DNA from: JACPSX01 sp035288405 [NCBI: bacterium]
GTDB lineage: Bacteria; JACPSX01
Length of the DNA: 12,598 bases
NCBI GenBank assembly: GCA_035288405.1
Contig: DATEAK010000139.1
Coordinates: 1 to 12,598, forward strand
Reading direction: 5' to 3'
The notes under the pieces were generated by a model. The model was not told where the DNA came from. It ran no database searches and worked only from the letters and a program-made list of their open reading frames with translations. Numbering within the stretch: position 1 is the first letter of the stretch; each line of letters opens with the position of its first letter. The position numbers were made by a program, and so were the translations under genes. Shown here piece by piece: positions 1-11,489 of the stretch.

Positions 1-1115
1 CCTTCTCGCGACTCAACGGCAATAACCATCCCCGGCTCGAACGTCTGCGGGTGGTCCAGGGAGAAGACACGGCTGATGACCGGCTCTTCATAGGTGAAGC
101 CAACGCCGTGCCCGACCTCGGCCACCAGCAATCTCTGCTCCGCTTCGTAGCCCCAGGTGCTGGCAGGCAGGAAATGCTTAGCCGCCTGCGCCGTGGTGGC
201 ACCGGGCTTGATTTCCGAGATCACCGAATAGACGCGGTCTCGGCATTTCTTGTACCAGTCCTTCTCTCTTGCGTTCGGCTTTCTCCCGCAGATGAAGCTT
301 CGGTAAATGCACACCCGGTAGCCCGCGAAGGTGGTGGAGCACGTATTCATGTAGAGGAGGTCTCCCACTTCGATGATCCGGTCCGAATTGCCGGAATGGT
401 AGACCTCGAAGGTGTTGGGTCCCGAACGGACTCCGCCGGAGGCCATTTCCGCCCCCGCCCTCCATATGGCGGCCAGCGCCTCGGCTCCCACATCCCGCTC
501 GCGCATGCCCGGTCTCAGAGTTTCCCAGAGGCTGGCATAACCCGTCTCGGCGATAGAAATCGCCAAGCGCATGCATTTCACCTCATCGGGAGTTTTTGTG
601 CGCCGGGCCTCCGACAGGGCCGGCATCACGCCGACGGTCTCGATGCCGAGTTCCGCCAGCGCTTGCTTGCCCGCTTCATCTATACTGTCGACCCCGATCT
701 TCTCCTTGTGAACACCCTTCTCCTTCAAGTCCCGGTAAATCGCCTCGGCAAACCTCTTGGCCTCAACCTTGGTGGCCTCCGATCCCCCGATCCCGTTCAA
801 CCAGCAGTAGGCGAATCGCCAGTTCTCCGGCGGGATCCAGGTGCAGTGGACCCGGTTGTGCTCCAGCATGTCGCCGAGCTCGTACATGATCGGACCATGC
901 TCTGCAAAGCCCAATGCGTAGCGGAGCTGGTTGGCGAAAAACGGTCCTTTCACGCTGGTCACATAGCGAATGTTGTCCGTGCGGGTCAGAAGACACGCGG
1001 CAATCCCTCTTTTCTTCATGGCCGCCTGCGCCTTTGCCAGCCTCTCCTGCCTCATGCGGGGATAATCAATGCGCTCTTGCCAGTCCACAGCACCGATTCC
1101 GTACGCCAATTTCAT
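1..1115 (-). CDS. M24-family (creatinase/prolidase fold) protein, 3' end outside window
   Basis: The first 371 codons are visible and the C-terminus lies beyond the left edge. Residues about 1-165 look like a creatinase N-terminal domain, and from about 170 the pita-bread M24 domain follows. Two hallmarks of the catalytic domain are present: GHGVG with H336, and FEPGMVIAVE with E368. The two aspartates that normally bind metal are missing. In the GDLLYMN segment N257 stands where Asp is expected, and in GYRVCIYRSF C269 stands where the second Asp (GYxxDxTR) is expected, with one extra residue between them. A dinuclear-metal aminopeptidase is therefore unlikely. A metal-free creatinase-like hydrolase or another non-peptidase is more plausible (inference). 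The start at 1115 has GGAGGCGG just upstream. It lies 33 bases after the sulfite-oxidase-like gene and is the last visible gene of the UbiD operon. Confidence 0.88.
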   Translation of the reverse strand, partial: MKLAYGIGAVDWQERIDYPRMRQERLAKAQAAMKKRGIAACLLTRTDNIRYVTSVKGPFFANQLRYALGFAEHGPIMYELGDMLEHNRVHCTWIPPENWRFAYCWLNGIGGSEATKVEAKRFAEAIYRDLKEKGVHKEKIGVDSIDEAGKQALAELGIETVGVMPALSEARRTKTPDEVKCMRLAISIAETGYASLWETLRPGMRERDVGAEALAAIWRAGAEMASGGVRSGPNTFEVYHSGNSDRIIEVGDLLYMNTCSTTFAGYRVCIYRSFICGRKPNAREKDWYKKCRDRVYSVISEIKPGATTAQAAKHFLPASTWGYEAEQRLLVAEVGHGVGFTYEEPVISRVFSLDHPQTFEPGMVIAVESRE

Positions 1116-1148
1116 ATGAAACCGCCTCCTATTCTTTGGATCTCAGTC

Positions 1149-1811
1149 TTACCGTCGGTTCCGAAGCTTGCGGGCCGCCTCCGTCCGCATTTGCTGCATG
1201 GCCCGGGTCTCCTGGCTGGAGTAGCGTTCCTCCTGCCATGGCTCGCCACGCATGTGATAGCCGTTGACCTCCCAGAACCCCGGAGCGTTCACGTCCATAA
1301 ACTCGAAACCCCGTGCCCACTTGGCGCTTTTCCAGAAGTAGAGCCGGGGGATCACCAGGCGGCAAGGCCCGCCGTGTTCGGGCTCTAAGTCCTTCCCGTT
1401 GTGCTTGAGCGCCAGGAGCACATCGTCCTGGACCAGCTCTTCCAGAGTCACATTCGTTGTGTAGTCCGGGTCCGCGTGAACCATGACCGCCTTTACCTCC
1501 GGTTTGAGGCGCACGCGGCTCATGATCTCCCGGATATGGATTCCCTCCCAGCGGGTGTCGAACATGCTCCAGGTCGTCACACAGTGAATGTCGGAGACCA
1601 CCTCCGCATGGGGCAGCGCCAGAAACTCCTCCCAACTCCACACCACTTCTTCTTCCACAAGGCCGAAGCAGCGGAACCTCCACGTTTTCGGATCAAAGCA
1701 CGGAGTCGCCCCGTAGGTCAGAACCGGCCACTTGACCGTCAGTGTCTGCCCCGGAGGAAGCCGCTTCTTCAAGTCCGGATCCATCTCCTTCTCAAAGAAT
1801 CCCCACTTCAT
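1149..1811 (-). CDS. Sulfite-oxidase-like molybdopterin oxidoreductase
   Basis: A 220-residue protein that resembles the short, soluble YuiH-type members of the sulfite oxidase superfamily. These carry only the molybdopterin-binding domain, without heme or dimerisation domains. Visible signatures are LPPGQTLTVKWPVLTYG near residues 18-34, CFGLVEEEVVWSWEEFLALP, and DIHCVTTWS, where C77 is the expected cysteine ligand of molybdenum. FWEVNGYHMRGEPW closes the fold. No signal peptide or twin-arginine motif is seen, so it is probably cytoplasmic. The open frame extends 19 codons further upstream into the aldolase gene. I chose the ATG at 1811 because GGAG sits 6 bases before it and it falls 1 base after the aldolase stop, which implies translational coupling. 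The substrate is unknown for this family. No molybdenum cofactor synthesis genes are in view. Confidence 0.88.
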   Translation of the reverse strand: MKWGFFEKEMDPDLKKRLPPGQTLTVKWPVLTYGATPCFDPKTWRFRCFGLVEEEVVWSWEEFLALPHAEVVSDIHCVTTWSMFDTRWEGIHIREIMSRVRLKPEVKAVMVHADPDYTTNVTLEELVQDDVLLALKHNGKDLEPEHGGPCRLVIPRLYFWKSAKWARGFEFMDVNAPGFWEVNGYHMRGEPWQEERYSSQETRAMQQMRTEAARKLRNRR

Positions 1812-1812
1812 T

Positions 1813-2556
1813 TCAATCTCCGCTGTCCTTCGCCAGCGATTCCAGATATTCGAAGGCATGAGGGGCACGATTTCTCATGTTCTGTGCGAAGATCTGACAG
1901 AAGTTTACGGGCAAGGATTCCGGCTCGCCGATCATGGAAGCGATGAGCTGCATCTGGGCCGCTCGTTCCAGGTACACGGCGTTGAAGACCGCCTCCTCCA
2001 CGCTCCCGCCCACGACCACGACGCCGTGATTCTTCAACAACAGCGCGTTTCGATCCCCCAGAGTGTCGGCCACCTCCCGCCCGTCCTCCGCTGAAACGAT
2101 CAGATCCGCCTTGTGGAGGATGGGAGTGCCGTTGCCGAAAGCGGCGGCCGTGATGTGCACCGGCAGGATCTCCTTGCCCGCCACACTGAAGGCGGTGGCG
2201 AAAAGCTGGTGCGTGTGGATCACGCTGTGCACGTCGGGCCGAGCCTCGAGCACCGCGGCATGGATGATCGTCTCCCGAGGCGGTAGAGCCGCTTCGTGGA
2301 TCGCCTTGTTGATGCCGGCAATCTTGCGGGCGTTGTCCGCAATTTGCGCTTTGTACTCATCGATGTTGACTCGCAGGATATCCCCGGCCGTAATTTCCCT
2401 CAGCGAGATCAGGACCGGCTTGATCAACAAATCCCGGGTCCCGGGGATGCGGGCGCTCAGGTGGCCATGATAATCCGCCAGCCCCGTCTGAAAGAGAATT
2501 CTTGTTCCCCGGGCTACCTTATCTTTTAGAACCTCGACCTCATGCTCCGTTGCCAT
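1813..2556 (-). CDS. Class II aldolase/adducin-family protein
   Basis: A 247-residue cytoplasmic enzyme of the fuculose-phosphate aldolase family, which uses a divalent metal to stabilise an enediolate during aldol cleavage or decarboxylation. The catalytic acid is E95 in PPRETIIH. The metal ligands are H114 and H116 in VIHTHQ, and H177 in LKNHGVV. The spacings 95-114 and 116-177 match those of E. coli fuculose aldolase (E73, H92, H94, H155), so the active site looks intact. GLADYHGHLSARIP near residues 25-38 is the usual N-terminal substrate loop. AGGAGG lies 4 bases before the chosen ATG. Its stop is almost joined to the sulfite-oxidase-like start. In similar clusters such proteins act on hydroxy or keto acids after decarboxylation steps, but the actual substrate is not readable here. 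Confidence 0.92.
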   Translation of the reverse strand: MATEHEVEVLKDKVARGTRILFQTGLADYHGHLSARIPGTRDLLIKPVLISLREITAGDILRVNIDEYKAQIADNARKIAGINKAIHEAALPPRETIIHAAVLEARPDVHSVIHTHQLFATAFSVAGKEILPVHITAAAFGNGTPILHKADLIVSAEDGREVADTLGDRNALLLKNHGVVVVGGSVEEAVFNAVYLERAAQMQLIASMIGEPESLPVNFCQIFAQNMRNRAPHAFEYLESLAKDSGD

Positions 2557-2599
2557 TCATCCTCCTACTGCGAGCTCAATCAAAAGAACCCTCTCTCTA

Positions 2600-2624
2600 C
2601 CTCTCCCCCTAGAAGGGGGAGAGG
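2600..2624. repeat. Perfect 11-bp inverted repeat with 3-base loop between two operon genes
   Basis: CCTCTCCCCCT at 2600-2610 is followed by a 3-base loop (AGA) and the exact reverse complement at 2614-2624. It sits in the 92-base gap between the first binding protein and the aldolase gene. On the transcribed strand no U-run follows the hairpin, so it is a poor rho-independent terminator. It resembles dispersed CT/GA-rich palindromes common in many bacterial genomes. In mRNA it could protect the upstream binding-protein message or limit readthrough. Confidence 0.7.
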
Positions 2625-2648
2625 ATGGAGGTGAGGAGGTGTGCAGCA

Positions 2649-3668
2649 TCACTTGATCCCGGCAAAGACCTGAGCAATGAATCCACTCTCCTCCAGTTCC
2701 TTGAGCAAGCTGTTGTCGTAAAATTGCTCCGGCTTGGCCTCTTTGGCTTTGGGGATGTTCCGCGCGATCAGATCATCCAGAACCACCTGCACTCCTTCCC
2801 GGCTCGTGTAGGGAATCCGGGGAAAGTAACGGGCCTGGTAATTATACGTTTCCTCCAGGATCTCGGGGTCCGTGGTGCGGGTGTACTTGGCGATGACTTT
2901 CTTGGCGTATTCTTTATCCTTGAAGTAGACGGCCGTGCCGGCAATGATCCCTTTCAGGAAATTCTTGGTCTCTTCCCGATTGGCCTTGAGGAATGCTCCT
3001 CGCACAGCGGCTCCGGCATGGGGGTAAGCGAATCCCAGGCTACCGAGGTCCACGAGTTCTATGAAACCCGCTTTCTTCAGTTTGAGGGAAGTCGGCATGG
3101 AAGTGACTCCGCCTGCGACCGCCCCGTTCACCATTCCCGCCAGCACCTCGGGCATACCTCCCAATTGGAGAATATTCACATCCTTACCGGGAACCAGATT
3201 GAAGCGCTTCAGTATGTAGCGGGCGGACAGATCCGTGGAAGAGCCGAAACGCGAGATGCCGACGGCCAGCCCTTTGAGATCCTGGACCGCTTTAATGTCC
3301 TTGCGCACGAAGAGAGACATGGTTACCGTAGCCACCGGGGTGGCGATCAAGATGTCGTTGGAGCCCGCCAGATCCGCCGGCACCAAGCTTGATCCCGCCA
3401 CCAGCCCGAAGGGGACGTCCCCGGAAGCCATGGCTTGACTCACCATGCTTCCACCCCCGAGGTAGATCAGCTCCACGTTCTTGAGACCATACTTGTCAAA
3501 GAGGCCGGCCTCCTTGGCGATGAAGGTCTGGGCAAAGTTGGCGGCGATGGAAGCATAGGCGACGCGGATGTGTCCACCGGCCCCTTGGGCCATGACAGCC
3601 GAACTCCCGGCCGTGATCCCAAAAGCCAAAAGCGCGGCAACGATCAGCAAAACTCTTAGACGTCTCAT
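2649..3668 (-). CDS. ABC transporter substrate-binding protein, NMT1/SsuA-like (copy 1)
   Basis: A 339-residue periplasmic protein. It starts with a Sec signal (MRRLR followed by a hydrophobic stretch to about residue 22) and a likely cleavage after A27 in SSAVMAQ. The mature part has the NMT1/THI5/SsuA binding-protein pattern: FIAKEAGLFDKYGL, ELIYLGGGS, a mid-chain VQDLKGLAVGISRFGSSTDLSA hinge segment, and LQLGGMPEVLAGMVNGAV. The C-terminus (KYTRTTDPEILEETY ... ELEESGFI) is shared with the two other binding proteins in this window, so all three are paralogues. Related proteins bind sulfonates, nitrate, pyrimidines or organic acids; the ligand here cannot be told. A purine-rich stretch GGGGGGAAGGGG precedes the start. 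It lies 64 bases after copy 2, and no permease or ATPase is nearby. Confidence 0.92.
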   Translation of the reverse strand: MRRLRVLLIVAALLAFGITAGSSAVMAQGAGGHIRVAYASIAANFAQTFIAKEAGLFDKYGLKNVELIYLGGGSMVSQAMASGDVPFGLVAGSSLVPADLAGSNDILIATPVATVTMSLFVRKDIKAVQDLKGLAVGISRFGSSTDLSARYILKRFNLVPGKDVNILQLGGMPEVLAGMVNGAVAGGVTSMPTSLKLKKAGFIELVDLGSLGFAYPHAGAAVRGAFLKANREETKNFLKGIIAGTAVYFKDKEYAKKVIAKYTRTTDPEILEETYNYQARYFPRIPYTSREGVQVVLDDLIARNIPKAKEAKPEQFYDNSLLKELEESGFIAQVFAGIK

Positions 3669-3732
3669 AACGTACCCCTTCCCCCCACATGTTAGAGACT
3701 TGCCAAACCGCTCAAAGGCACAAGATTCCTCC

Positions 3733-4734
3733 TCACTGCAGGTTTTTTATGAATCCGCTTTCCACCAATTCATTGACGTACGTCGGGTTGATGAACTCGC
3801 GGGGATCCGCTTCCCTGGCCTTGGGATTTTTGGCGGCTTCCTGATCGAGGACGGCCTTGACCTCGTCGACACCCGGAATCGGAGGAAACTGGAAGTAGCG
3901 CTTGGCATACACATCGTAGGTATCCGTCAGAACCTCGGGGTCATCCATCCGGGTGTACTTCTTCAGCACTCTGAGACTGTAGTCTTTTTGTGTCTTCACC
4001 CGGTGAATGCTGTCGACGACGGCCCGCAGGAAACGGCGGATAACTTCCTCGTGGGAGCGCATGTACGATTCTCGGGCGATGTAGTTGGTAGACGGGTAGC
4101 GGTATTTCAGCTTGGAAAGATCCGCCAGCTCCACAAAGCCGAGCTTCTTGGCCACGCTGAGATCCGGCGCCGTCAAGGCGGTCCCCTGGATTGCTCCTTG
4201 CCGCAAGGCCGCCAGAGATTCCGGAACGCCGCCCATCTGAATGATCTTCACATCCCGGTTCGGATCCATTCCCCAGGCTTGCAGCTGGCTGCGGGTCCCG
4301 AAGTCGGTCAACGACCCGTAACGGGTCACTCCCAGAATTTTCCCTTGCAGGTCTTTAGGCTCGTGTATGCCCGGATGGACCATCAAGCTCACGCTGATCA
4401 CGTTCACCAGGGTCGCGAAGATCATCGTGTCCGAGCCGGACAGGCGCGCCAGAATGCTGCCCGTTCCGGCACTCTGGGTGATGGGGGTATCTCCGGAAAT
4501 CACGGCCGTGACCGCTTTGGTGGCACCGCCGAGATAGATCAGCTCCACATCGAGACCGTACTTCTCGAAAAGTCCGGAGTCTTTTCCCAACCAGAGGGGA
4601 AGGGTCGTACCGCTAATCACCGAGTAGCCCATCTTGAGCTTGGACGCCTGCTGTGCTTCTCCCGGCCCCACTCTCAAAAGACACGCCAGGACCGCCACAA
4701 ACAGAGCCACACACAGGGTCCGCCGCGACATCAT
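3733..4734 (-). CDS. ABC transporter substrate-binding protein, NMT1/SsuA-like (copy 2)
   Basis: A 333-residue periplasmic binding protein. The signal peptide runs from MMSRRTLC through a hydrophobic core, with probable cleavage near A27 (PGEAQQ). The mature domain shows LPLWLGKDSGLFEKYGLDVE, IYLGGATKAV, GKILGVTRYGSLTDFGTRSQ and IIQMGGVPESLAALRQGAI, all typical of the NMT1-like family, and it ends in NELVESGFIKNLQ. The frame is open for 21 codons upstream, but I chose the ATG at 4734 because AAGGAGG lies about 8 bases before it and a lysine/arginine-rich signal peptide begins there. It is the first of two tandem paralogues and lies downstream of the UbiD gene, so it most likely brings in the substrate of that operon. 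The ligand is unknown. Confidence 0.92.
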   Translation of the reverse strand: MMSRRTLCVALFVAVLACLLRVGPGEAQQASKLKMGYSVISGTTLPLWLGKDSGLFEKYGLDVELIYLGGATKAVTAVISGDTPITQSAGTGSILARLSGSDTMIFATLVNVISVSLMVHPGIHEPKDLQGKILGVTRYGSLTDFGTRSQLQAWGMDPNRDVKIIQMGGVPESLAALRQGAIQGTALTAPDLSVAKKLGFVELADLSKLKYRYPSTNYIARESYMRSHEEVIRRFLRAVVDSIHRVKTQKDYSLRVLKKYTRMDDPEVLTDTYDVYAKRYFQFPPIPGVDEVKAVLDQEAAKNPKAREADPREFINPTYVNELVESGFIKNLQ

Positions 4735-4815
4735 CAGGATTTCCTCCTTGCCCCTCCGGATGAATTCCCATGATCGGTCCGGGATCGCAGCGGTCAAGTC
4801 AATCGGCAGGTTGCG

Positions 4816-4914
4816 TCAGCTCCCGTGCTCTCTGAGCCAATCCCGGGCAAGGGGGGAGCCGGGCTGCGCCGACAACAGGAAAAGCGCAACGATCGCCGGG
4901 ATCAACGCCTTCAT
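4816..4914 (-). CDS. Possible 32-residue secreted or signal-peptide-like small ORF
   Basis: In the 208-base gap between the UbiD gene and binding-protein copy 2, an ATG 28 bases after the UbiD stop opens a 32-codon frame. It begins MKALIPAIVALFLLSAQ and ends RDWLREHGS before TGA. The first 16 residues look like a Sec signal core with a lysine start, and an Ala-Gln-Pro-Gly stretch follows. A G-rich GGGAACGGGGGC precedes the ATG and is a weak ribosome binding site. It could be a short exported peptide, a leader, or the remnant of a lost binding-protein gene whose signal peptide survives. I do not recognise a family, and chance cannot be excluded at this length. Confidence 0.35.
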   Translation of the reverse strand: MKALIPAIVALFLLSAQPGSPLARDWLREHGS

Positions 4915-4942
4915 GCCCCCGTTCCCTGTCGTCAACAATGAT

Positions 4943-6403
4943 CTACTCGAACAACTTCCCCCACTTCTTGTCGACCATCGCGTGGAGTTCGGGACTCACT
5001 TCCGCCACGTGCGGGAACTGTTCCTTCCACTCCCAGGGCCGGGTGGCATCAAAGATCGCCCGGGAATTAAATCCTTTTTCGCCGACGGGGATAATCGGAT
5101 CCAAGGGCCCGCTCCAGGTGCGGCGCAGGATGTCGATGTCCTTTACCGGATCGACCCGCGTGCACATGGCCCACATGACGTCGTTGAGGCTGGTGACGTC
5201 AATGTCGTCGTCCACCACCACGACGTAGCGCCCGAGGTAAGCCCCGGCCCGGCACTGGGAAGCCACCAGAGCCGCCTGCTTCGCGTGCCCCGGGTAGCGC
5301 TGCTTGATCCCTACGACCACCAGCAGCCGTGAGCCGCCCGCCTCGTGGCACCACACTTTGGTGACATCGGGGATTCCGGCTTTTTCCAGCTCTTCTTGAA
5401 TGAGCCCTGCTCGCATGAAGGTGCGGTAAAAGAGGGGCTCCGCCGGCGGCTTGGTCACCAGGGTGCCGAGGATGATGGGGTCATTGCGGTGGTAGACGGC
5501 CTCCACTTTGATCAGCGGCTCGAGGCGATGGGAGCTGGCGTAATATCCGGTCCACTCCCCGAAAGGCCCTTCCTCGCCGACATAGTCTTCGGTGGCGAAG
5601 CCTTCGATAACGATCTCGGCATTGGCCGGAATCGGCAGTCCCGTCACGGGTCCCCGGATCACATCGACCGGCTCTCCCTTCAAGCCGCCGATGTAGTCGT
5701 ACTCGCAGACACCATTGGGCACCTCGAGCCCGCCGACCATGTAGACCAGGGGGTCGTGCCCGAAGGAGACGGCCACCGGGCAGGGCTTCTTCCGGTCGAA
5801 GTATTTCTGGCGATGGATGCGCCCGTTCTTACCCGGGGAAATATAGAAGCAGATGTGCTTCTCGTCTTTCACCATACAGCGATAGACGCCGAGATTTACC
5901 CAGTCGCTGTCGGGGTCCCGGGTGATGTCCACGCTCCCGGTGCCTATGTAGCGCCCGCCGTCTTCCTCGTGCCAGCGCGGCGTCGGGAACATAAGCATGT
6001 TCACCTTGTCTCCCGTAAGCACGTTCTCCATGACCGGGCCGTCTTTAACGAAGCGGGGCGGGATCATCTGGAGGTTCGCGGTGCGCTGCCGCCAGGTCGG
6101 CACCGAACTTTGCAGGGTCATGTCCATAGGGAGGCCCGTCGTGATCGCTACGCGCTTCAAAGACCCCAGGGGGTTACTGAGAACACGAAATCCCGGTGGG
6201 TAGTCTTTGATTTTGTCGAACAGCACCGAGTAATTGACGGGCTGCTTTCTGTGGGCGTAATCGGTAATGGCGCCGATTTCCACGTCCCAGTGAGCGCCAT
6301 TCACTCGCTTGAGCTCTCCGATTTGCTCCGCCTTCTCGATCCAGTCCCTCAAATCCTTGATCGCCGCGGTTTCTTCCATCAACTCCTTCAGAGCCAGTTC
6401 CAT
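4943..6403 (-). CDS. UbiD-family prenylated-FMN-dependent decarboxylase
   Basis: A 486-residue cytoplasmic enzyme of the UbiD/Fdc family, which (de)carboxylates aromatic or alpha,beta-unsaturated acids using prenylated FMN made by a UbiX-type partner (not in view). Cofactor and metal residues are present: N170 and R175 in WVNLGVYR, H197 in GRIHRQKY, and E234 in CEYDYIGGL. The catalytic segment EEGPFGEWTGYY supplies E278 and E283, with the 5-residue spacing of fungal Fdc1 E277/E282 next to the R173 counterpart R175. The enzyme therefore looks active. The length is normal for the family. AAGGAGGT lies 5 bases before the ATG. It is the first gene of the minus-strand operon, behind the promoter at 6501-6529 with a leader of about 90 bases. 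The neighbouring binding proteins and aldolase suggest catabolism of an imported carboxylic acid (inference). The substrate is not predictable from these motifs. Confidence 0.95.
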   Translation of the reverse strand: MELALKELMEETAAIKDLRDWIEKAEQIGELKRVNGAHWDVEIGAITDYAHRKQPVNYSVLFDKIKDYPPGFRVLSNPLGSLKRVAITTGLPMDMTLQSSVPTWRQRTANLQMIPPRFVKDGPVMENVLTGDKVNMLMFPTPRWHEEDGGRYIGTGSVDITRDPDSDWVNLGVYRCMVKDEKHICFYISPGKNGRIHRQKYFDRKKPCPVAVSFGHDPLVYMVGGLEVPNGVCEYDYIGGLKGEPVDVIRGPVTGLPIPANAEIVIEGFATEDYVGEEGPFGEWTGYYASSHRLEPLIKVEAVYHRNDPIILGTLVTKPPAEPLFYRTFMRAGLIQEELEKAGIPDVTKVWCHEAGGSRLLVVVGIKQRYPGHAKQAALVASQCRAGAYLGRYVVVVDDDIDVTSLNDVMWAMCTRVDPVKDIDILRRTWSGPLDPIIPVGEKGFNSRAIFDATRPWEWKEQFPHVAEVSPELHAMVDKKWGKLFE

Positions 6404-6500
6404 GATCTACCTCCTTGTGAATACCAGATATCCCGCTCGGTTCGGGAGGGGGACACCTTCCTCTATGTTTTGGAGAAATCAGGGGAAAAAGATTATTTGT

Positions 6501-6529
6501 ATTTTAACACAGACCTCGGGCGGAGTAAA
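6501..6529 (-). promoter_or_regulatory. Predicted sigma70 extended -10 promoter of the UbiD operon
   Basis: On the minus strand, TTTACT (6524-6529) is followed by a 17-base spacer and TAAAAT (6501-6506). TGT stands directly before the -10 box, giving the extended -10 pattern TGnTAAAAT. The predicted transcription start is near 6494, leaving a leader of about 90 bases before the UbiD ATG. Within the leader a small inverted repeat, TCCCG with CGGGA (6431-6447), could form a weak hairpin. Upstream of the -35 lies a GGGGTCCCC dyad (6554-6562), a possible operator. No terminator separates this from the regulator gene ending at 6605, so readthrough is possible. Confidence 0.6.
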
Positions 6530-6604
6530 GAACAGGATCTCACGATGGGGATAGGGGTCCCCAGAGCGGACGGAGGATTTGCAGCGGAAACCACTGAAGC
6601 CGGA

Positions 6605-7927
6605 TCAGCCGGCTGAGCCATCCAAGACCTTTCCCCAATCTCCCATAAGCTTCTCTACTTGGTCTCTTAGGATGGGGATTTTCTCTGAATCCAGCTTCAG
6701 AAACTGCCAAGATCTGGTGTTTTCCAGCTTTGTATCCTCTGGCAGCGCTTGTCCGTATCCCATGGACTTGGCCAACACATTTGCGAAATGCACAACCATG
6801 AGCGATTTGGGTACAGGGTCAACGGCTTCCAACTTGCTATGGTACATGGTGATTGGGAGATACTCCTCCGGAAATTGCCAACTCTTCAGGAGGGTGGTCC
6901 CAAATTCGCAATGATTCGCATCCAGCATGTTTTGCAAGTCCGTGCGCTCCGCTTTGCGAGCCATTTTGCCGCTCGCTTCCAATTCGCAAATGATCTTTAA
7001 AAGACCCAATTTGCCGATATCGTGCAGCAACCCCATGGTGAAAGCCTCTTCGGAATCCTTCGAGCCGGCGATTTCCGTTACCAACTTGCAAGCATAGGCG
7101 CAGGCCAGAGAATGGTTCCACAGACTCTTGGCGACCTGCTCATGTTCCTGACCCATATTCGTGTAAAGAGACTTGTTCGCGATCAGATCCACCTGCATCT
7201 TTGCCTCGTTGGTCCCTAAACGGGTGATGGCCTGCTCCAAAGTGGAGTTTTTTGACACGCCTCGATAATAGGGAGAGTTCGATATCCGAATCAGGGAGGC
7301 GGAAATCGCGGCATCATGCTTCAGAAGATTCGTCAGCTCTTGGACACTGGCGCCTTTTTTCACCATCTCTCTGAACTTCACGCTGATCTGAGGGATGGAG
7401 GGGAGACCGATTTCCCCGTTTTTCAGGCGGGAGGCGATTTCCTCATAGATGCTCTTTGGTTTTTTCTGAGGCGGGGCTTGTACGACGTTCTTTTGAGAGA
7501 TGCCAAGACGTTTTTCCAATTCAGTCACCTGTGTTCTCAAGGCGACAATGGCATGTTTCATGTCTTTCAGTTTCTGAATTCTTTCCAGAGCTCTCTTTAC
7601 CGAGAGATTGAGTAAGTGATAGTAGTTCGCAGTCTTCACAAGATAGCTATAGTCGCCCAATTTCAGGGTCTCAAGAACGCACGTGTCATCATCCGGCGGG
7701 GCAAGCATGAGAACGGGGAGATTGTGTTTCTCTAATATTTGCTTGAGAAAATCGATTCCAGAATGCTCTGTGAAGGTATGATCCAGTAGAATAAGATCCG
7801 GTTTCTCGGCCAGACCGGCGAGTTCCTCAGGTGAGCGAATCGTATGGGCGTTAAACTCTTTGCTTATTTCTTCTCGAATTTTTTCGACTTCAGCTTCGTT
7901 TTTGCCGGCAATGAGGACGGATTTCAT
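6605..7927 (-). CDS. Receiver-like/HDOD two-domain signalling protein
   Basis: A 440-residue cytoplasmic protein. Residues 1-115 are a response-regulator receiver-like domain with phospho-acceptor candidate D49 (LILLDH) and K98 (YLVKTAN). The usual N-terminal acidic pair is missing: G8-K9-N10-E11 stand where DD is expected, so Mg-dependent phosphorylation may be impaired. Residues about 112-142 form a probable coiled-coil linker. From about 162 an HDOD domain follows (LKNGEIGLPSIPQI, WNHSLA with H272, LLHDIGKL with H302-D303). HDOD proteins usually act as signalling scaffolds without phosphodiesterase activity. I start it at the ATG at 7927 because a receiver domain typically begins like MKSVLIAG; the frame remains open to an ATG at 7993, which would add 22 residues. 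The chosen ATG overlaps the TGA of an upstream small ORF. The gene is poorer in G+C than its neighbours. What it regulates is unknown. Confidence 0.85.
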   Translation of the reverse strand: MKSVLIAGKNEAEVEKIREEISKEFNAHTIRSPEELAGLAEKPDLILLDHTFTEHSGIDFLKQILEKHNLPVLMLAPPDDDTCVLETLKLGDYSYLVKTANYYHLLNLSVKRALERIQKLKDMKHAIVALRTQVTELEKRLGISQKNVVQAPPQKKPKSIYEEIASRLKNGEIGLPSIPQISVKFREMVKKGASVQELTNLLKHDAAISASLIRISNSPYYRGVSKNSTLEQAITRLGTNEAKMQVDLIANKSLYTNMGQEHEQVAKSLWNHSLACAYACKLVTEIAGSKDSEEAFTMGLLHDIGKLGLLKIICELEASGKMARKAERTDLQNMLDANHCEFGTTLLKSWQFPEEYLPITMYHSKLEAVDPVPKSLMVVHFANVLAKSMGYGQALPEDTKLENTRSWQFLKLDSEKIPILRDQVEKLMGDWGKVLDGSAG

Positions 7928-8151
7928 TGGACTGATCCAAACCACCCTCTTGGTGATGACGGTTTCCCGGTCTCCAGAGTTGTTTCCGGCCATTCACCAT
8001 AAATCACCGGAAGACTCTGGACGACTGGATCGCCGTAGAATCTTCGCAAAATGATCCCACACTTCACGACTTCTTGTCGGAATATTGATTCTATAGCTTG
8101 AGCTGGATTTAGCGGCAGATCAGCGGACATCCCGGCAGCGGCAGTCGGCAC
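7924..8151 (-). CDS. Possible small hypothetical protein overlapping the HDOD gene (ATGA)
   Basis: An open frame of 75 codons from a GTG at 8151, or 68 from an ATG at 8130. Its TGA (7924-7926) overlaps the HDOD-gene ATG (7925-7927) as ATGA, the classic arrangement for translational coupling. That would explain why the HDOD start lacks a good ribosome binding site. Codon third positions are moderate in G+C, like the HDOD gene. The predicted protein has no membrane segment or motif I recognise; SIFRQEVVKCGIILRRFYGD is its central part. No strong ribosome binding site precedes either start. If the HDOD gene instead starts at 7993, this ORF would be a chance overlap. Confidence 0.35.
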   Translation of the reverse strand: MPTAAAGMSADLPLNPAQAIESIFRQEVVKCGIILRRFYGDPVVQSLPVIYGEWPETTLETGKPSSPRGWFGSVQ

Positions 8152-8194: not shown

Positions 8195-8274
8195 TGTAGG
8201 AGCACCTGCCTACCGCCCCAGCGGGGCAGGCAGGCGCAGACAGGTGGGTGCCCAATTACAATTGGGGCTTTACA
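8195..8274. repeat. Cluster of nested and adjacent inverted repeats
   Basis: Several dyads are packed in 80 bases. CCTGCC (8205-8210) pairs with GGCAGG (8229-8234), enclosing GCCCC/GGGGC (8215-8219 with 8223-8227). An alternative outer pairing is CACCTG (8203-8208) with CAGGTG (8241-8246). Next, CCCAATT (8251-8257) and AATTGGG (8260-8266) form a near-perfect 7-bp hairpin. TGTA at 8195 and TACA at 8271 bracket the cluster. It looks like a palindromic intergenic repeat of the REP or miniature-element type, but only one copy is in the window. Confidence 0.55.
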
Positions 8275-8297: not shown

Positions 8298-8427
8298 TTT
8301 ACTTACTTAATCTTTTCCGATTTTTTGGACAGATTCCCGACGATGTGGCTCAACTCACGTTTGAGGTCGCCGAACCTGGAGGGGTGATTCAGGAGAACTC
8401 CCTACCCATCGTGAATTGGAGGAAGAA

Positions 8428-9429
8428 ATGAAAAAGAACGGCATTATGATCTGGATTCTATTGATCCTGGGAGTGATGTCTTTCGCCATCGCACCCGCCC
8501 AAGGAAAGGAAGCCGACAACATCCGGGTGGCCCGATCCTCGGACTCGGCCACTGAGTCCGCCGTCTGGTTCGGAAAAGAGGCCGGCCTTTATGAGAAGTA
8601 CGGCCTTTCCGTCGAATTGATCCGCATCCGCGGAAGCTCCGCCGTGGTGCAGACCATGCTGTCGGGTGACATCGCGGTCAGTCAGATCGGAGGCTCCGCG
8701 GTGGTGGATGCCAATCTGGCCGGGGCGGATTTGACCACGGTGGCGACGATCATCCGAAGTTTCGTTTTCTATCTTTTCAGCCGGCCGGAAATCCAACGGG
8801 TCGAGGATTTACGTGGAAAGGCCATCGGCACCAGCCGTTTCGGCGCGATCTCCGATTTTGCGGGTCGTTTCGCCCTGGAAAAGTACGGCCTCCAGGCGGA
8901 GAAAGATGTGACCATCCTGCAAACCGGCGGGCCTGCGGAAAGCGTGGCCGCTCTCAACGGGAACCGGATTCAGGCAGTCGCCTTAACGGCGCCGGCCACA
9001 ATTCAGGCAAGAAAACTAGGACTCCGGCCCCTTCTGGATATCTCGAAGCTCGAAGCGAATTTCCCTTTCAACGGCGTGGTGGTCACCCGCACATACCTCA
9101 AGAACAACGAAGATATCGTGAAGCGTTTCATGAAAGGCTACATTGAAGGGGTCGTGCTGGCCAAAAAGGACCCGGTGTTCGCCAAGAGGGTAATGGCAAA
9201 GTACTTCCGTAGTGATGACAAAGAGGTTTTGGAAGAGAGTTATGAATGGATTGTGAAACAGAACACCTCCATTCCTCCGTATCCAGCCACCCGAGGATTT
9301 GCAACCATTTTGCAGGGGATTGAAAAGCGAAATCCGAAAGCCAAGCTGGCCAAACCGGAGGATTTTGTCGACAGCCGCATCGTCCGCGAGCTGGATGAAA
9401 GCGGATTCATCAAGAGTCTCTCGCAGTAA
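8428..9429 (+). CDS. ABC transporter substrate-binding protein, NMT1/SsuA-like (copy 3)
   Basis: A 333-residue periplasmic binding protein. The signal peptide is MKKNGIM plus a hydrophobic core to about residue 21, with cleavage likely after A24 (IAPAQG). The mature domain has WFGKEAGLYEKYGLSVE, VEDLRGKAIGTSRFGAISDF, ILQTGGPAESVAALNGNRI, KYFRSDDKEVLEESY and the shared C-terminus RELDESGFIKSL. It is a paralogue of the two minus-strand binding proteins. A frame from a TTG at 8416 exists, but GGAGG lies 5 bases before the ATG at 8428, which I chose. It is the first gene of the plus-strand operon. It lacks a nearby permease or ATPase, so it must work with a distant transporter or have another receptor role. 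The ligand is unknown; the downstream genes hint at an amino-acid-like or imine-forming or hydroxy-acid compound (inference). Confidence 0.92.
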   Translation: MKKNGIMIWILLILGVMSFAIAPAQGKEADNIRVARSSDSATESAVWFGKEAGLYEKYGLSVELIRIRGSSAVVQTMLSGDIAVSQIGGSAVVDANLAGADLTTVATIIRSFVFYLFSRPEIQRVEDLRGKAIGTSRFGAISDFAGRFALEKYGLQAEKDVTILQTGGPAESVAALNGNRIQAVALTAPATIQARKLGLRPLLDISKLEANFPFNGVVVTRTYLKNNEDIVKRFMKGYIEGVVLAKKDPVFAKRVMAKYFRSDDKEVLEESYEWIVKQNTSIPPYPATRGFATILQGIEKRNPKAKLAKPEDFVDSRIVRELDESGFIKSLSQ

Positions 9430-9478
9430 AAACTTCGGCCTTCTTCCAAGGCAAGTTTAAGAAAGGAGAATGGATCCG

Positions 9479-10576
9479 ATGTTGTTCTTGCACAACGACG
9501 ACGTGAAGCAGGTGCTGGACATGCGCACCTGTATTGACACGCTGGAAGAAGCCTACCGCGAGCTGGCCGCCGGTACCGCAGGACATCGTCCCCGCATTGA
9601 CTTCTACGTGCCGGGAGAACCACATTACTACCGGTGGGGCACCATGGAAGGCGTCTCCCGGAAGCTTGGAATCTTCGCCATCCGCATGAAGTCCGACATG
9701 CTCGTGTGGAATCGCACGGGGGAATTTCAAACCGAGGATAAATACTGTATTCAACCGGGGACTTACTGCGGATTGATCTTCCTGCTGAGCGTTCGAAACG
9801 GCGAGCCTCTGGCATTGATCAACGACGGCACCCTGCAGCACATGCGGGTGGGCGCCTGCGCGGGACTCGGGGCCAAGTACCTCGCCCGCCCGAACTCGCA
9901 GGTGCTGGGGATGCTGGGCGCGGGGGGTATGGCCCGGTCGTACGCGACGGCCATCCGGGAGGTCCGTCCGATCCGGCGGATCCAGGTCTTCAGCCCTACC
10001 CAGGCCAACCGGGAAAGTTACGCGGACGAAATGAAAGAGCAACTTGGCGTGGAGGTGGAACCGGTTGATTCCCCCGAGAAGGCAGTTCGAGGAGCGGATA
10101 TTGTGGCGCTTGCCACCGATTCGCTCGTGCCCGTCGTCAAGGCCGCCTGGCTGGAGCCCGGCATGCACGTCACAAACGTGCGCCCGAACGAAACGGGTCC
10201 CGACGTGCCGGCCCGGGCCGATGTGATCGCCCGTCTGGGCAGCGCCACGCTTCGCATGGATAATCCACCTCCGGGCACGATCGGGGGAAGCGATGGAATG
10301 TTCGCCTACTTCGTCGGCACTCCAGAAGAGAAGCAGCGCTTGCCGTATTCTCCCTCTGCGGAGCTCGCCGATCCCAAGGCCGGCACACTTCCCGACATCA
10401 TTGCAGCCCGGCAAGCCGGGCGCACAAGCGATCAGCAAATCACCTTCTTCAGCAATATCGGCACGCAAGGACTGCAATTCGCGGCAGCGGGTGCCAAAGT
10501 CTACGAATTGGCCAAGGCGAAGGGTCTGGGTCACGTGTTGCCGACCGAATGGTTCGTGCAAAACATCCGCGACTGA
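9479..10576 (+). CDS. Ornithine cyclodeaminase/mu-crystallin-family oxidoreductase
   Basis: A 365-residue NAD(P)-dependent protein. Family features in order are an N-terminal substrate part with K71 (AIRMK) and R123 (QHMRVGACAG), the Rossmann motif GMLGAGGMARSYA (residues 144-156), and the C-terminal GRTSDQQITFFSNIG ... VYELAKAKGLG. The family includes ornithine cyclodeaminase, alanine dehydrogenase and imine or ketimine reductases. The segment that normally carries the catalytic Asp (GAD in ornithine cyclodeaminase) reads NVRPNETGPDVP, so true ornithine cyclodeamination is doubtful. The protein is about 40 residues longer than typical members, with extra sequence near residues 72-98 and 255-290. 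I start at the ATG at 9479 because AGGAG lies 10 bases upstream; the ATG at 9470 is too close to that site. It follows binding-protein copy 3 by 49 bases and precedes the next dehydrogenase by 28. Confidence 0.9.
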   Translation: MLFLHNDDVKQVLDMRTCIDTLEEAYRELAAGTAGHRPRIDFYVPGEPHYYRWGTMEGVSRKLGIFAIRMKSDMLVWNRTGEFQTEDKYCIQPGTYCGLIFLLSVRNGEPLALINDGTLQHMRVGACAGLGAKYLARPNSQVLGMLGAGGMARSYATAIREVRPIRRIQVFSPTQANRESYADEMKEQLGVEVEPVDSPEKAVRGADIVALATDSLVPVVKAAWLEPGMHVTNVRPNETGPDVPARADVIARLGSATLRMDNPPPGTIGGSDGMFAYFVGTPEEKQRLPYSPSAELADPKAGTLPDIIAARQAGRTSDQQITFFSNIGTQGLQFAAAGAKVYELAKAKGLGHVLPTEWFVQNIRD

Positions 10577-10604
10577 GAGGTTCGAATCAGGAGGAGTATT
10601 GGAT

Positions 10605-11489
10605 ATGGAAAGACTGGGATTCATCGGCACGGGCGGCATGGGCGGCCCCATGGCGGCCAATTTGATGAAAGCAGGCTACAAGCTCACGGTCCTTGATTTG
10701 AGGCGGGAGGCAACCAAGAGCCTGGAGGAAAAAGGCGCAGCGTACGCCTCCTCTCCGAGAGCGGTTGCCGAGGCGTCCGAAGTCGTGCTCTCGATGCTTC
10801 CGTTTGGCGAAGCGGTTCGGGAAGTGGGACTGGGAAAAAACGGACTCGTGGAGGCCGGCTCCGGAGCCAGGATCTGGATCGATTTGAGCAGCGTCGAGGA
10901 GCAGGCCATCGTCGAGGCGGAAAAAATCCTGAAGCCCAAGGGCTGGACCGTGATTGACGCCACCGTGGGAGGGGTAGAGGAATATGCTGCGGCCGGCGAG
11001 CTCTCCATCAAAGTCGCCGGAGACAAAGCCGCGGTGGACCGGATCCAGCCTCTTCTGGAGCCCATGGGCAAGAAAATCACCTACTGCGGCGCCTTGGGCA
11101 ACGCCAAGCTGGTGAAGACGGCGACCGCCATGCATGCGGCCGTGCAGACCATGGCGACCGTGGAAATCTTCAACTGGCTCAAGTCGTGCGGGGTCAGCGA
11201 GGAGGTCACGCACGAAGCGTTCAAGGACTCCCAGTCCTGGTCTGTCTCCATCCAGCGCAACTGCGAGGCAATCCTGGCCAAGAAGTTCAAGCCCCGCAAG
11301 TCCTGGATGCCCAAAGACATCGGCTTCGGCCTGGATAACGCTCAGGAAAGAGGGGTACCTCTGCCCTTCACCGCACTGGCAAGACAACTCTTCAACGTGG
11401 CCCGCTCCAACGGCATGGACGGCTACGAGGCCATAGGAATCGCTTACAAAGTCTACGAACTGCTGGGGATGGGAGAGAAACCCGAATAG
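10605..11489 (+). CDS. 3-hydroxyisobutyrate-dehydrogenase-family (beta-hydroxyacid) oxidoreductase
   Basis: A 294-residue NAD(P)-dependent enzyme of the beta-hydroxyacid dehydrogenase family. The N-terminal cofactor motif GFIGTGGMGGPMAANL (residues 5-20) is textbook, the interdomain helix follows at about 165, and the C-terminal domain is all-alpha. K168 (GNAKLVKT) aligns with the catalytic lysine. Two other family marks are altered: the substrate loop DAPVSGG reads DATVGGV (118-124), and the asparagines after the catalytic lysine (KxxNN) are replaced by K171 and T172. The substrate may thus differ from hydroxyisobutyrate or tartronate semialdehyde; imine reductases of this fold are one alternative. 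AGGAGG lies 10 bases before the chosen ATG. It is the last gene of the operon and ends 11 bases from the convergent membrane-anchor gene. Confidence 0.92.
   Translation: MERLGFIGTGGMGGPMAANLMKAGYKLTVLDLRREATKSLEEKGAAYASSPRAVAEASEVVLSMLPFGEAVREVGLGKNGLVEAGSGARIWIDLSSVEEQAIVEAEKILKPKGWTVIDATVGGVEEYAAAGELSIKVAGDKAAVDRIQPLLEPMGKKITYCGALGNAKLVKTATAMHAAVQTMATVEIFNWLKSCGVSEEVTHEAFKDSQSWSVSIQRNCEAILAKKFKPRKSWMPKDIGFGLDNAQERGVPLPFTALARQLFNVARSNGMDGYEAIGIAYKVYELLGMGEKPE

What the first reader, a model, noticed from the sequence alone, without database searches (positions are those of the whole stretch)
1..6529. A UbiD decarboxylase operon that packages two binding proteins with an aldolase, a Mo-enzyme and an M24-fold protein
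Six same-strand genes with short gaps, good ribosome binding sites and one strong promoter upstream. The combination of prFMN decarboxylase, tandem periplasmic binding proteins, class II aldolase, sulfite-oxidase-like protein and a metal-ligand-less M24 protein does not match a textbook pathway I can name. It could be an uptake and degradation route for an aromatic or unsaturated acid, possibly one bearing a sulfur or nitrogen group.
Basis: partly seen in the sequence, partly recalled or inferred. Interest (0 to 1): 0.6.

Follow-up and report, generated by a model that had tools for sequence, protein, structure and literature searches.

The report
UbiD operon with two binding proteins
A run of six bacterial genes probably takes up and breaks down some unsaturated or aromatic acid; the enzymes belong to known families, the exact combination was not seen elsewhere, and two of its pairings (decarboxylase with an aldolase-type enzyme, peptidase-like enzyme with binding proteins) recur in other bacteria.

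Summary
The six-gene same-strand cluster is real (UbiD, two NMT1-type binding proteins, class II aldolase fold, short sulfite-oxidase-like Mo protein, M24-fold protein cut by the window edge). I read it as an uptake-coupled catabolic operon for an anionic unsaturated or (hetero)aromatic acid; the substrate is unknown. The UbiD's nearest solved relative is phenazine-1-carboxylate decarboxylase (40% identity). The whole six-gene set was found nowhere else in the genomes reached. Pairwise links recur: 40 of 76 UbiD loci have a binding protein within 2.5 kb (not so in a second set of 20); 17 of 25 M24 genes likewise; the aldolase's orthologue lies directly upstream of a UbiD in 30 of 30 Binatia-class genomes, in a core block near ileS and glnB. 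That UbiD is only about 38% identical to the window's, and the core setting also allows an anabolic role. The Mo gene shows no link to UbiD. 'Metal-ligand-less' is half right: two Asp ligands are replaced (Asn, and Cys with a second Cys nearby), His and Glu stay. The 'strong promoter' is not above chance in number, and a hairpin lies between the second binding protein and the aldolase. Verdict: a new arrangement of known parts.

The parts
4943..6403 (-). UbiD-family prFMN decarboxylase, 486 aa; first gene of the cluster
   Evidence: PF01977 216.8 bits plus UbiD_N and UbiD_C; TIGR00148 297.3 bits over its cut-off 244.85; R175, E278, E283 invariant in a 40-sequence alignment; model pLDDT 90.6, best match 7pda Z 45.5
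3733..4734 (-). NMT1/SsuA-fold periplasmic binding protein SBP1 with signal peptide (start ATG 4734 after AAGGAGG; the longer TTG 4797 start is less likely)
   Evidence: PF09084 70.5 bits, scanned with the longer start; upstream sequence; signal peptide read from the sequence by eye
2649..3668 (-). NMT1/SsuA-fold periplasmic binding protein SBP2, 36% identical to SBP1
   Evidence: PF09084 62.4 bits; alignment A2; model pLDDT 93.8, best match 3qsl Z 31.9
1813..2556 (-). class II aldolase/adducin-fold enzyme, 247 aa; relative of a Binatia-class core gene that is followed by a UbiD in the 30 genomes looked at
   Evidence: PF00596 135.5 bits; orthologues, UbiD adjacency in 30 of 30
1149..1811 (-). 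short sulfite-oxidase-like molybdopterin protein, 220 aa, no signal peptide seen, starts 1 nt after the aldolase stop
   Evidence: PF00174 136.9 bits and no further Pfam family; relatives at up to 67%, in 20 of 20 fetched regions without UbiD, binding-protein, aldolase or M24 hits
3..1115 (-). M24 (pita-bread fold) protein of a two-Cys type, last part beyond the window
   Evidence: PF00557 84.8 bits; Asn257, Cys259, Cys269, His336, Glu368 in alignment
6501..6529 (-). sigma-70-like promoter match TTTACT-17-TAAAAT with TG, candidate promoter of the cluster
   Evidence: 9 of 12; the number of such sites in the window is not above shuffles
2560..2650 (-). SBP2-aldolase intergenic stretch with a perfect 11-bp G+C-rich hairpin, no T run directly after it; possible attenuation or processing point
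   Evidence: -41.2 kcal/mol for the 91 nt, z -2.46, 5 of 200 shuffles as stable
4816..4914 (-). 32-codon signal-peptide-like ORF in the UbiD-SBP1 gap, perhaps a remnant
   Evidence: translation

Best explanation
An uptake-coupled catabolic operon for one (or a few related) anionic unsaturated or (hetero)aromatic carboxylic acids. SBP1 and SBP2 would catch the acid in the periplasm and hand it to an ABC permease encoded elsewhere (none is in the window). In the cytosol the UbiD, with prFMN made by a UbiX encoded elsewhere, would remove a carboxylate next to a double bond or ring carbon. The class II aldolase-fold enzyme would carry out a metal-dependent C-C step coupled to the UbiD step (decarboxylation as in PhtC, or retro-aldol). 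The two-Cys M24-fold enzyme would cleave a C-N or other bond of the substrate or product, and the Mo protein would do an oxidation or reduction. Shown: gene content, families, key residues, the recurrent pairings. Inferred: direction, order of steps, ligand class. Unknown: the substrate.
For: Family assignments. UbiD R175/E278/E283 invariant in a 40-sequence alignment. Nearest solved relative by sequence is 7pda, phenazine-1-carboxylate decarboxylase (373 bits, next 213; 40% identity, Z 45.5, rmsd 2.8 over 463). Binding protein of one of four families within 2.5 kb of UbiD in 40 of 76 loci (41 of 77 if L059 is restored), density 0.159 per kb at 0-2.5 kb falling to 0.055 at 7.5-10 kb; 30 of these 40 loci hold no ATPase or permease hit in the held stretch. 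M24 of the window's kind: 17 of 25 genes in 20 regions within 2.5 kb of a binding protein, 0.227 falling to 0.067 per kb (26 hits, one gene being cut into two by a region border). Aldolase orthologue directly upstream of a UbiD in 30 of 30 Binatia-class genomes, found with the aldolase alone as query. A cluster with aldolase fold, UbiD, M24 and a binding protein within 6 kb (L295), UbiD and aldolase fold adjacent (L296), UbiD with aldolase fold and three NMT1 hits within 15 kb (L297) (these regions were picked because partners had been seen, and their aldolases are 33-38% identical). M24 relatives beside 2-oxoacid dehydrogenase and semialdehyde dehydrogenase genes in Haloferax and Phaeobacter.
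Against: No locus with the six-gene set was found in the loci searched. The Mo gene is within 10 kb of the anchor UbiD in 0 of 76 loci and 0 of 20. In the 76 loci the aldolase and M24 families are within 2.5 kb of the anchor UbiD in 0 and 0 (in L010 an aldolase lies beside another UbiD). In 20 loci of the phylum of G015 neither binding proteins (4 of 20 within 5 kb) nor aldolase (2 of 20) cluster near UbiD, although five of the 20 were chosen because a partner was seen. The Binatia aldolase's UbiD is only about 38% identical to the window's and that pair lies in a core block with ileS, a lipid A acyltransferase, glnB and glnA, which suits a biosynthetic role as well. No permease, UbiX or ring-opening gene in the window.
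Confidence: 0.5

Rival explanations
1. The aldolase-UbiD pair serves a core biosynthetic step (for instance a quinone or other cofactor precursor), and in the window this pair has been placed beside binding proteins and other genes without a shared pathway.
For: Aldolase-UbiD adjacency in 30 of 30 Binatia-class genomes, one copy at 50% identity or more in each, in a conserved core block: ileS at 68% or more in 23 (two more at 27-28% may be other synthetases), lipid A acyltransferase in 18, P-II in 14, glnA in 10 of 30 regions, many being cut by contig ends. UbiD and SCO4490-type enzymes are known quinone-pathway enzymes (family knowledge).
Against: The window's UbiD is a different paralogue (about 38% identity to the core one, up to 62% to others) and is followed by two exported binding proteins, which a cytosolic biosynthetic step does not need. 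It scores below the quinone-pathway equivalogs (216.7 of 495.9; 193.8 of 788).
Confidence: 0.2
2. The binding proteins are sensors or orphan receptors for many ligands, as in Bug/TctC-rich bacteria, and the operon is a loose gene neighbourhood rather than one pathway.
For: No ATPase or permease in the window; 30 of 40 UbiD-SBP loci lack them (limited by HMMs seeded from one operon); large binding-protein numbers in the class of G001 (29-441 first-look candidates for SBP2 in the 25 of 145 genomes that match); precedent of 434 TTT binding proteins in Rhodoplanes (PMC5994714, abstract); no linkage in the second set.
Against: Distance decay of binding-protein density around UbiD and M24; Mo gene 1 nt and M24 33 nt after their upstream genes.
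Confidence: 0.2
3. The UbiD works as a carboxylase that activates an unfunctionalised aromatic compound, as phenylphosphate carboxylase does.
For: Best NCBIfam model by score is phenylphosphate carboxylase beta, 313.6 bits; UbiD reactions are reversible (PMC8379154, abstract in listing).
Against: 313.6 is under that model's cut-off of 468.95; no second UbiD, phosphatase or synthase gene beside it in the window; exported binding proteins suggest an incoming charged solute.
Confidence: 0.08

Closest known systems
phdA-phdB-phdC operon of Mycolicibacterium fortuitum (PhdA, phenazine-1-carboxylate decarboxylase, PDB 7pda)
   Same: Nearest solved UbiD (40% identity over 463 residues, Z 45.5); UbiD of about 480 aa at the head of an operon
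   Different: phd is a three-gene operon with a UbiX (phdB) and the maturase phdC (PMC13040415, passages); the window shows neither and has binding proteins, aldolase fold, Mo and M24 genes
Aromatoleum aromaticum EbN1 plasmid 2, EBN1_RS22195-RS22170
   Same: UbiD 50% identical to the window's, beside an ABC substrate-binding protein gene
   Different: There the binding protein comes with its ATPase and permease, a second UbiD and a UbiX; no aldolase, Mo or M24 gene among the 29 listed features, the record's gene table being incomplete
Binatia-class core pair class II aldolase-UbiD (ileS/glnB block)
   Same: Aldolase 49-55% identical, UbiD directly downstream in 30 of 30
   Different: UbiD only about 38% identical; no binding-protein hit next to the pair; core chromosomal position.
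Orphan TTT binding proteins (Bug, TctC, TphC)
   Same: Expanded binding-protein families near catabolic genes; TphC binds terephthalate for uptake (PMC8556258, passages; PMC5994714, abstract)
   Different: Another binding-protein family (NMT1/SsuA fold, PF09084, not TctC)
Phthalate uptake system PatDABC and the pad genes of Rhodococcus jostii RHA1
   Same: ABC-type uptake of phthalate with PatD as predicted binding protein (PMC10973024, passages); a class II aldolase-fold decarboxylase (PhtC/PadC type) in that pathway is recalled
   Different: No UbiD (recalled); the window aldolase is under the PhtC cut-off (82.3 of 200)

Membership tests
UbiD family (prFMN-dependent decarboxylases) | three UbiD Pfam domains and subfamily model TIGR00148 above cut-off | tested here: met
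   (297.3 of 244.85)
UbiD family (prFMN-dependent decarboxylases) | Glu-Arg-Glu network at prFMN | tested here: met
   R175, E278, E283 invariant in 40 sequences; which residues form the network is placed by recall of Fdc1 numbering and the abstract of PMC5818171 seen in a listing
PhdA, phenazine-1-carboxylate decarboxylase | closest to PhdA among solved UbiDs, same substrate | tested here: inconclusive
   373 bits against 213 for the next, 40% identity; in the structure comparison 7pda (Z 45.5) is tied within Z 1 with 7ae4 and 6h6v; substrate not testable
PhdA, phenazine-1-carboxylate decarboxylase | operon with UbiX (phdB) and maturase (phdC) | tested here: inconclusive
   no such family among the window proteins scanned, but the cluster may go on past the window's edge
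Phenylphosphate carboxylase beta (TIGR02724) | score over curated cut-off | tested here: not met
   313.6 of 468.95
3,4-dihydroxyphthalate decarboxylase PhtC (NF053537) | score over curated cut-off | tested here: not met
   82.3 of 200
Class II aldolase/adducin superfamily | PF00596 above cut-off, metal-binding His residues | tested here: met
   135.5 of 22.2; HTH and NHG motifs read in the sequence, their role recalled
Aliphatic sulfonate binding protein SsuA (TIGR01728) | score over curated cut-off | tested here: not met
   67.2 and 55.4 of 163.5; fold shared
Complete ABC importer | ATPase and permease genes in the cluster | tested here: inconclusive
   none among window genes; the cluster's 3' end lies beyond the window
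M24 metallopeptidases | five metal ligands Asp, Asp, His, Glu, Glu | tested here: not met
   Asn257 and Cys269 replace the Asp ligands; His336 and Glu368 kept; last Glu beyond the window (a Glu is there in full-length relatives); the ligand list is recalled
DMSP lyase DddP (NF043017) | score over curated cut-off | tested here: not met
   62.5 of 600, on a protein cut short by the window; an annotated DddP keeps Asp-Asp
Sulfite oxidase / MsrP | PF00174 plus equivalog cut-offs (MsrP, SoxC, SorA, SorT) | tested here: not met
   PF00174 met, but 51 of 207, 49.2 of 420, 40.2 of 600, 24.1 of 570

The most novel reading that the evidence does not exclude
In several uncultured lineages UbiD enzymes work with a dedicated class II aldolase-fold partner, as an undescribed two-enzyme C-C cleavage unit (a core version beside ileS/glnB in Binatia, and a version in the window coupled to binding proteins and to an M24-fold enzyme whose catalytic Asp pair has given way to a Cys-bearing site with new chemistry).
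Probability: 0.2. Interest if true: 0.75.

Novelty: new variant of a known kind. Interest (0 to 1): 0.45.

Why it matters
UbiD enzymes have few known substrates, and binding proteins beside them give a direct experimental handle (ligand screens) on substrates in uncultured bacteria that carry up to 121 UbiD matches. The aldolase-UbiD pair and the two-Cys M24 group are compact, testable enzyme problems. If the aldolase works on the UbiD substrate or product, a new coupled C-C cleavage unit would follow.

Tried and rejected
Search for the window's own genome: none held. UbiD scan of genome contigs: 77 loci, best 59%, none with the six genes by tblastn. UbiD scan of viral contigs: no relative. 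UbiD in 145 genomes of the class of G001: best 62%; in 297 genomes of the phylum of G012 and 301 of the phylum of G015: best 60% and 59%. SBP2 in the class of G011: nothing at E 1e-40 in 155 genomes; in 145 genomes of the class of G001: best 43%; 44% in L298. M24 in 20 genomes: best 65% in G015, then 48%; in 245 genomes of the class of G016: best 48%. The surroundings of the 65% relative are not used: my ORF caller failed there (six ORFs, no Pfam hit). Rfam and tRNA scans: nothing. Inverted repeat shared by the two divergent 5' regions (6540-6565 and 8389-8414): one of 17 such pairs, taken as chance. Papers: no listed row of the searches with both words (5 of 6, 20 of 152 and 15 of 63 rows listed) held UbiD together with Binatota; 7PDA with UbiD gave no paper; M24 ligand replacement gave one unrelated paper. 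Dropped rows and weak tools: L059 lost its UbiD to a hit of my UbiX HMM, hence 76 of 77; that UbiX HMM is therefore unreliable and its hits (L295, L297 and others) are not used as evidence. ATPase and permease counts rest on HMMs seeded from one EbN1 operon. The SBP_bac_8 and TctC seeds came from M24 neighbourhoods. In one search M24 rows under 330 residues and aldolase rows under 200 residues were left out; L088, partial, was left without a label although it has both Cys.


Full report
Observation. Six minus-strand genes lie at 3-6403 as described: UbiD, SBP1, SBP2, class II aldolase fold, short sulfite-oxidase-like Mo protein, M24. Gaps are 208, 64, 92, 1 and 33 nt. The aldolase stop and the Mo start are 1 nt apart, so these two are probably co-translated. 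The promoter at 6529-6501 is plausible in place (extended -10) but matches of this quality occur about as often in shuffled sequence (6 against 4.2 +/- 1.9). The SBP2-aldolase gap holds a perfect 11-bp hairpin that lacks a T run directly after it; it may be a repeat element or an attenuator. The HDOD response-regulator gene (6605-7993) lies upstream on the same strand at 201 nt, so the transcript might begin before UbiD.

The UbiD. All three UbiD domains are present and the subfamily model passes its cut-off while each equivalog model listed fails. R175, E278 and E283 are invariant in a 40-sequence alignment. The model (pLDDT 90.6) aligns best with 7pda, phenazine-1-carboxylate decarboxylase (Z 45.5, 40% identity), though 7ae4 and 6h6v are tied within 1 Z unit; by sequence 7pda leads clearly (373 bits against 213). 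This favours a (hetero)aromatic carboxylate as substrate, without showing it. The window shows neither the UbiX nor the PhdC gene that accompany PhdA (PMC13040415, passages).

The binding proteins. SBP1 and the divergent SBP3 are 36% and 38% identical to SBP2, all of the NMT1/SsuA fold. The SBP2 model (pLDDT 93.8) matches a Bordetella protein of unknown ligand best (3qsl, Z 31.9, rmsd 2.9 over 299) and then bicarbonate, nitrate, taurine, sulfonate and thiamine-precursor binders, so fold does not tell the ligand. No permease or ATPase is in the window.

Linkage outside. Of 76 UbiD loci from genome contigs (77 less L059), 40 have a binding protein (NMT1 15, SBP_bac_8 type 12, TctC 12, TAXI 5, overlapping) within 2.5 kb, with density falling from 0.159 to 0.055 per kb by 7.5-10 kb; L059, restored, would make 41 of 77. 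In 20 loci of the phylum of G015 this decay is absent (4 of 20 within 5 kb), so the linkage depends on lineage. Twenty M24 regions were picked from the hits (many from one genome, G016): 26 hits, 25 genes, of which 17 have a binding protein within 2.5 kb, 0.227 falling to 0.067 per kb. The SBP_bac_8 and TctC seeds were taken from such neighbourhoods, which affects detection but not the decay with distance. Genomes that give several loci, and related genomes, are not independent.

The aldolase. Searching 145 genomes of the class of G001 (which includes a MAG titled Candidatus Binatia, L014/G010) with the aldolase alone gave 31 genomes at E 1e-30 or better, 30 of them with one copy at 50-55% identity. 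In all 30 fetched regions a UbiD lies directly downstream on the same strand, ORF ends within about 210 nt (in L269 and L278 the UbiD is in two pieces); the 31st (G044, 40-43%) has none in its 16-kb region. The pair sits near ileS (23 of 30 at 68% or more, two more at 27-28%), a lipid A acyltransferase (18), P-II (14) and glnA (10), many regions being cut by contig ends. In the tree the window protein joins this group on a supported branch (100/95) and stands outside its 29 Binatia rows with weak support (65/93); its own branch is long, so its place is unsure. The paired UbiD is about 38% identical to the window's. Further cases: G176 (L296, aldolase fold adjacent to UbiD), G538 (L295, aldolase fold, UbiD, an M24 relative at 40% of undetermined type and an SBP_bac_8 within 6 kb), G741 (L297); these were picked because partners had been seen. 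In the 76 UbiD loci, by contrast, the aldolase is within 2.5 kb of the anchor UbiD in none.

The M24 protein. Aligned with E. coli, DddP, Rhizobium and Sinorhizobium relatives that keep Asp-Asp, the window protein has Asn257 and Cys269, and a second Cys259; His336 is kept in 39 of 39 rows and Glu368 in 38 (one row is cut short). Twenty-four of the 39 rows, the window included, carry both Cys; ten others (Haloferax, Halorussus, Phaeobacter, Paenarthrobacter, Rhodococcus and five unnamed) keep the first Asp but have the Cys at the second; five keep both Asp. With 23 and 10 rows labelled, the two kinds separate with one change on the tree, at weak support (64/74), the window and its G015 relative branching apart from the other two-Cys rows at an unresolved fork. 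So the site is changed rather than lost: it may hold a different metal set, or work through a thiol. G016 has eight such places on one contig, alternating with binding proteins. 'Two-Cys M24' is my own label; no such name comes from a call.

The Mo protein. It is a short single-domain relative of sulfite oxidases, common in the class of G001 (103 of 148 genomes at E 1e-3). In 20 of 20 fetched regions it had no UbiD, binding-protein, aldolase or M24 hit beside it, and none lay near the UbiDs examined. It is the least connected member.

Synthesis. The most likely reading is uptake-coupled degradation of an unsaturated or (hetero)aromatic acid (0.5). The main rivals are that the aldolase-UbiD link reflects a core biosynthetic step (0.2) and that the binding proteins are loose neighbours (0.2). 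The exact combination is new among what was searched, but its kinds are known; hence 'new variant of a known kind'.

Noticed in passing
genomes G001, G007, G182: Very large UbiD numbers: 121 (8.3 Mb), 64 (4.2 Mb) and 34 (4.4 Mb) PF01977 matches at E 1e-20; in the class of G001, 42 of 145 genomes have a match and 33 of the 42 reach the 19-per-genome scoring cap. G001 may be a mixed MAG.
   Followed up: partly
regions L264-L293: A class II aldolase-UbiD pair in a core block near ileS, lipid A acyltransferase, glnB and glnA in 30 Binatia-class genomes; function unknown.
   Followed up: partly
G016:C38 (L101, L102): Eight two-Cys-type M24 places on one contig, alternating with SBP_bac_8-type binding proteins.
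   Followed up: partly
window 8416-11489: Divergent cluster: third NMT1 binding protein, ornithine cyclodeaminase/mu-crystallin protein (73% identical over 278 aa to one at the end of L007, from G001) and a 3-hydroxyisobutyrate dehydrogenase-like protein; a second binding-protein-enzyme cluster.
   Followed up: no
window 6605-7993: Receiver plus HDOD protein on the same strand 201 nt upstream of UbiD; possible co-transcription.
   Followed up: no
window 8200-8260: G+C-rich palindromic stretch (CCTGCC...GGCAGG) in the divergent intergenic region, perhaps a repeat element.
   Followed up: no
L037 1-13000: Seven TctC-type hits around a UbiD, six of them downstream in a row (some perhaps split genes).
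   Followed up: no
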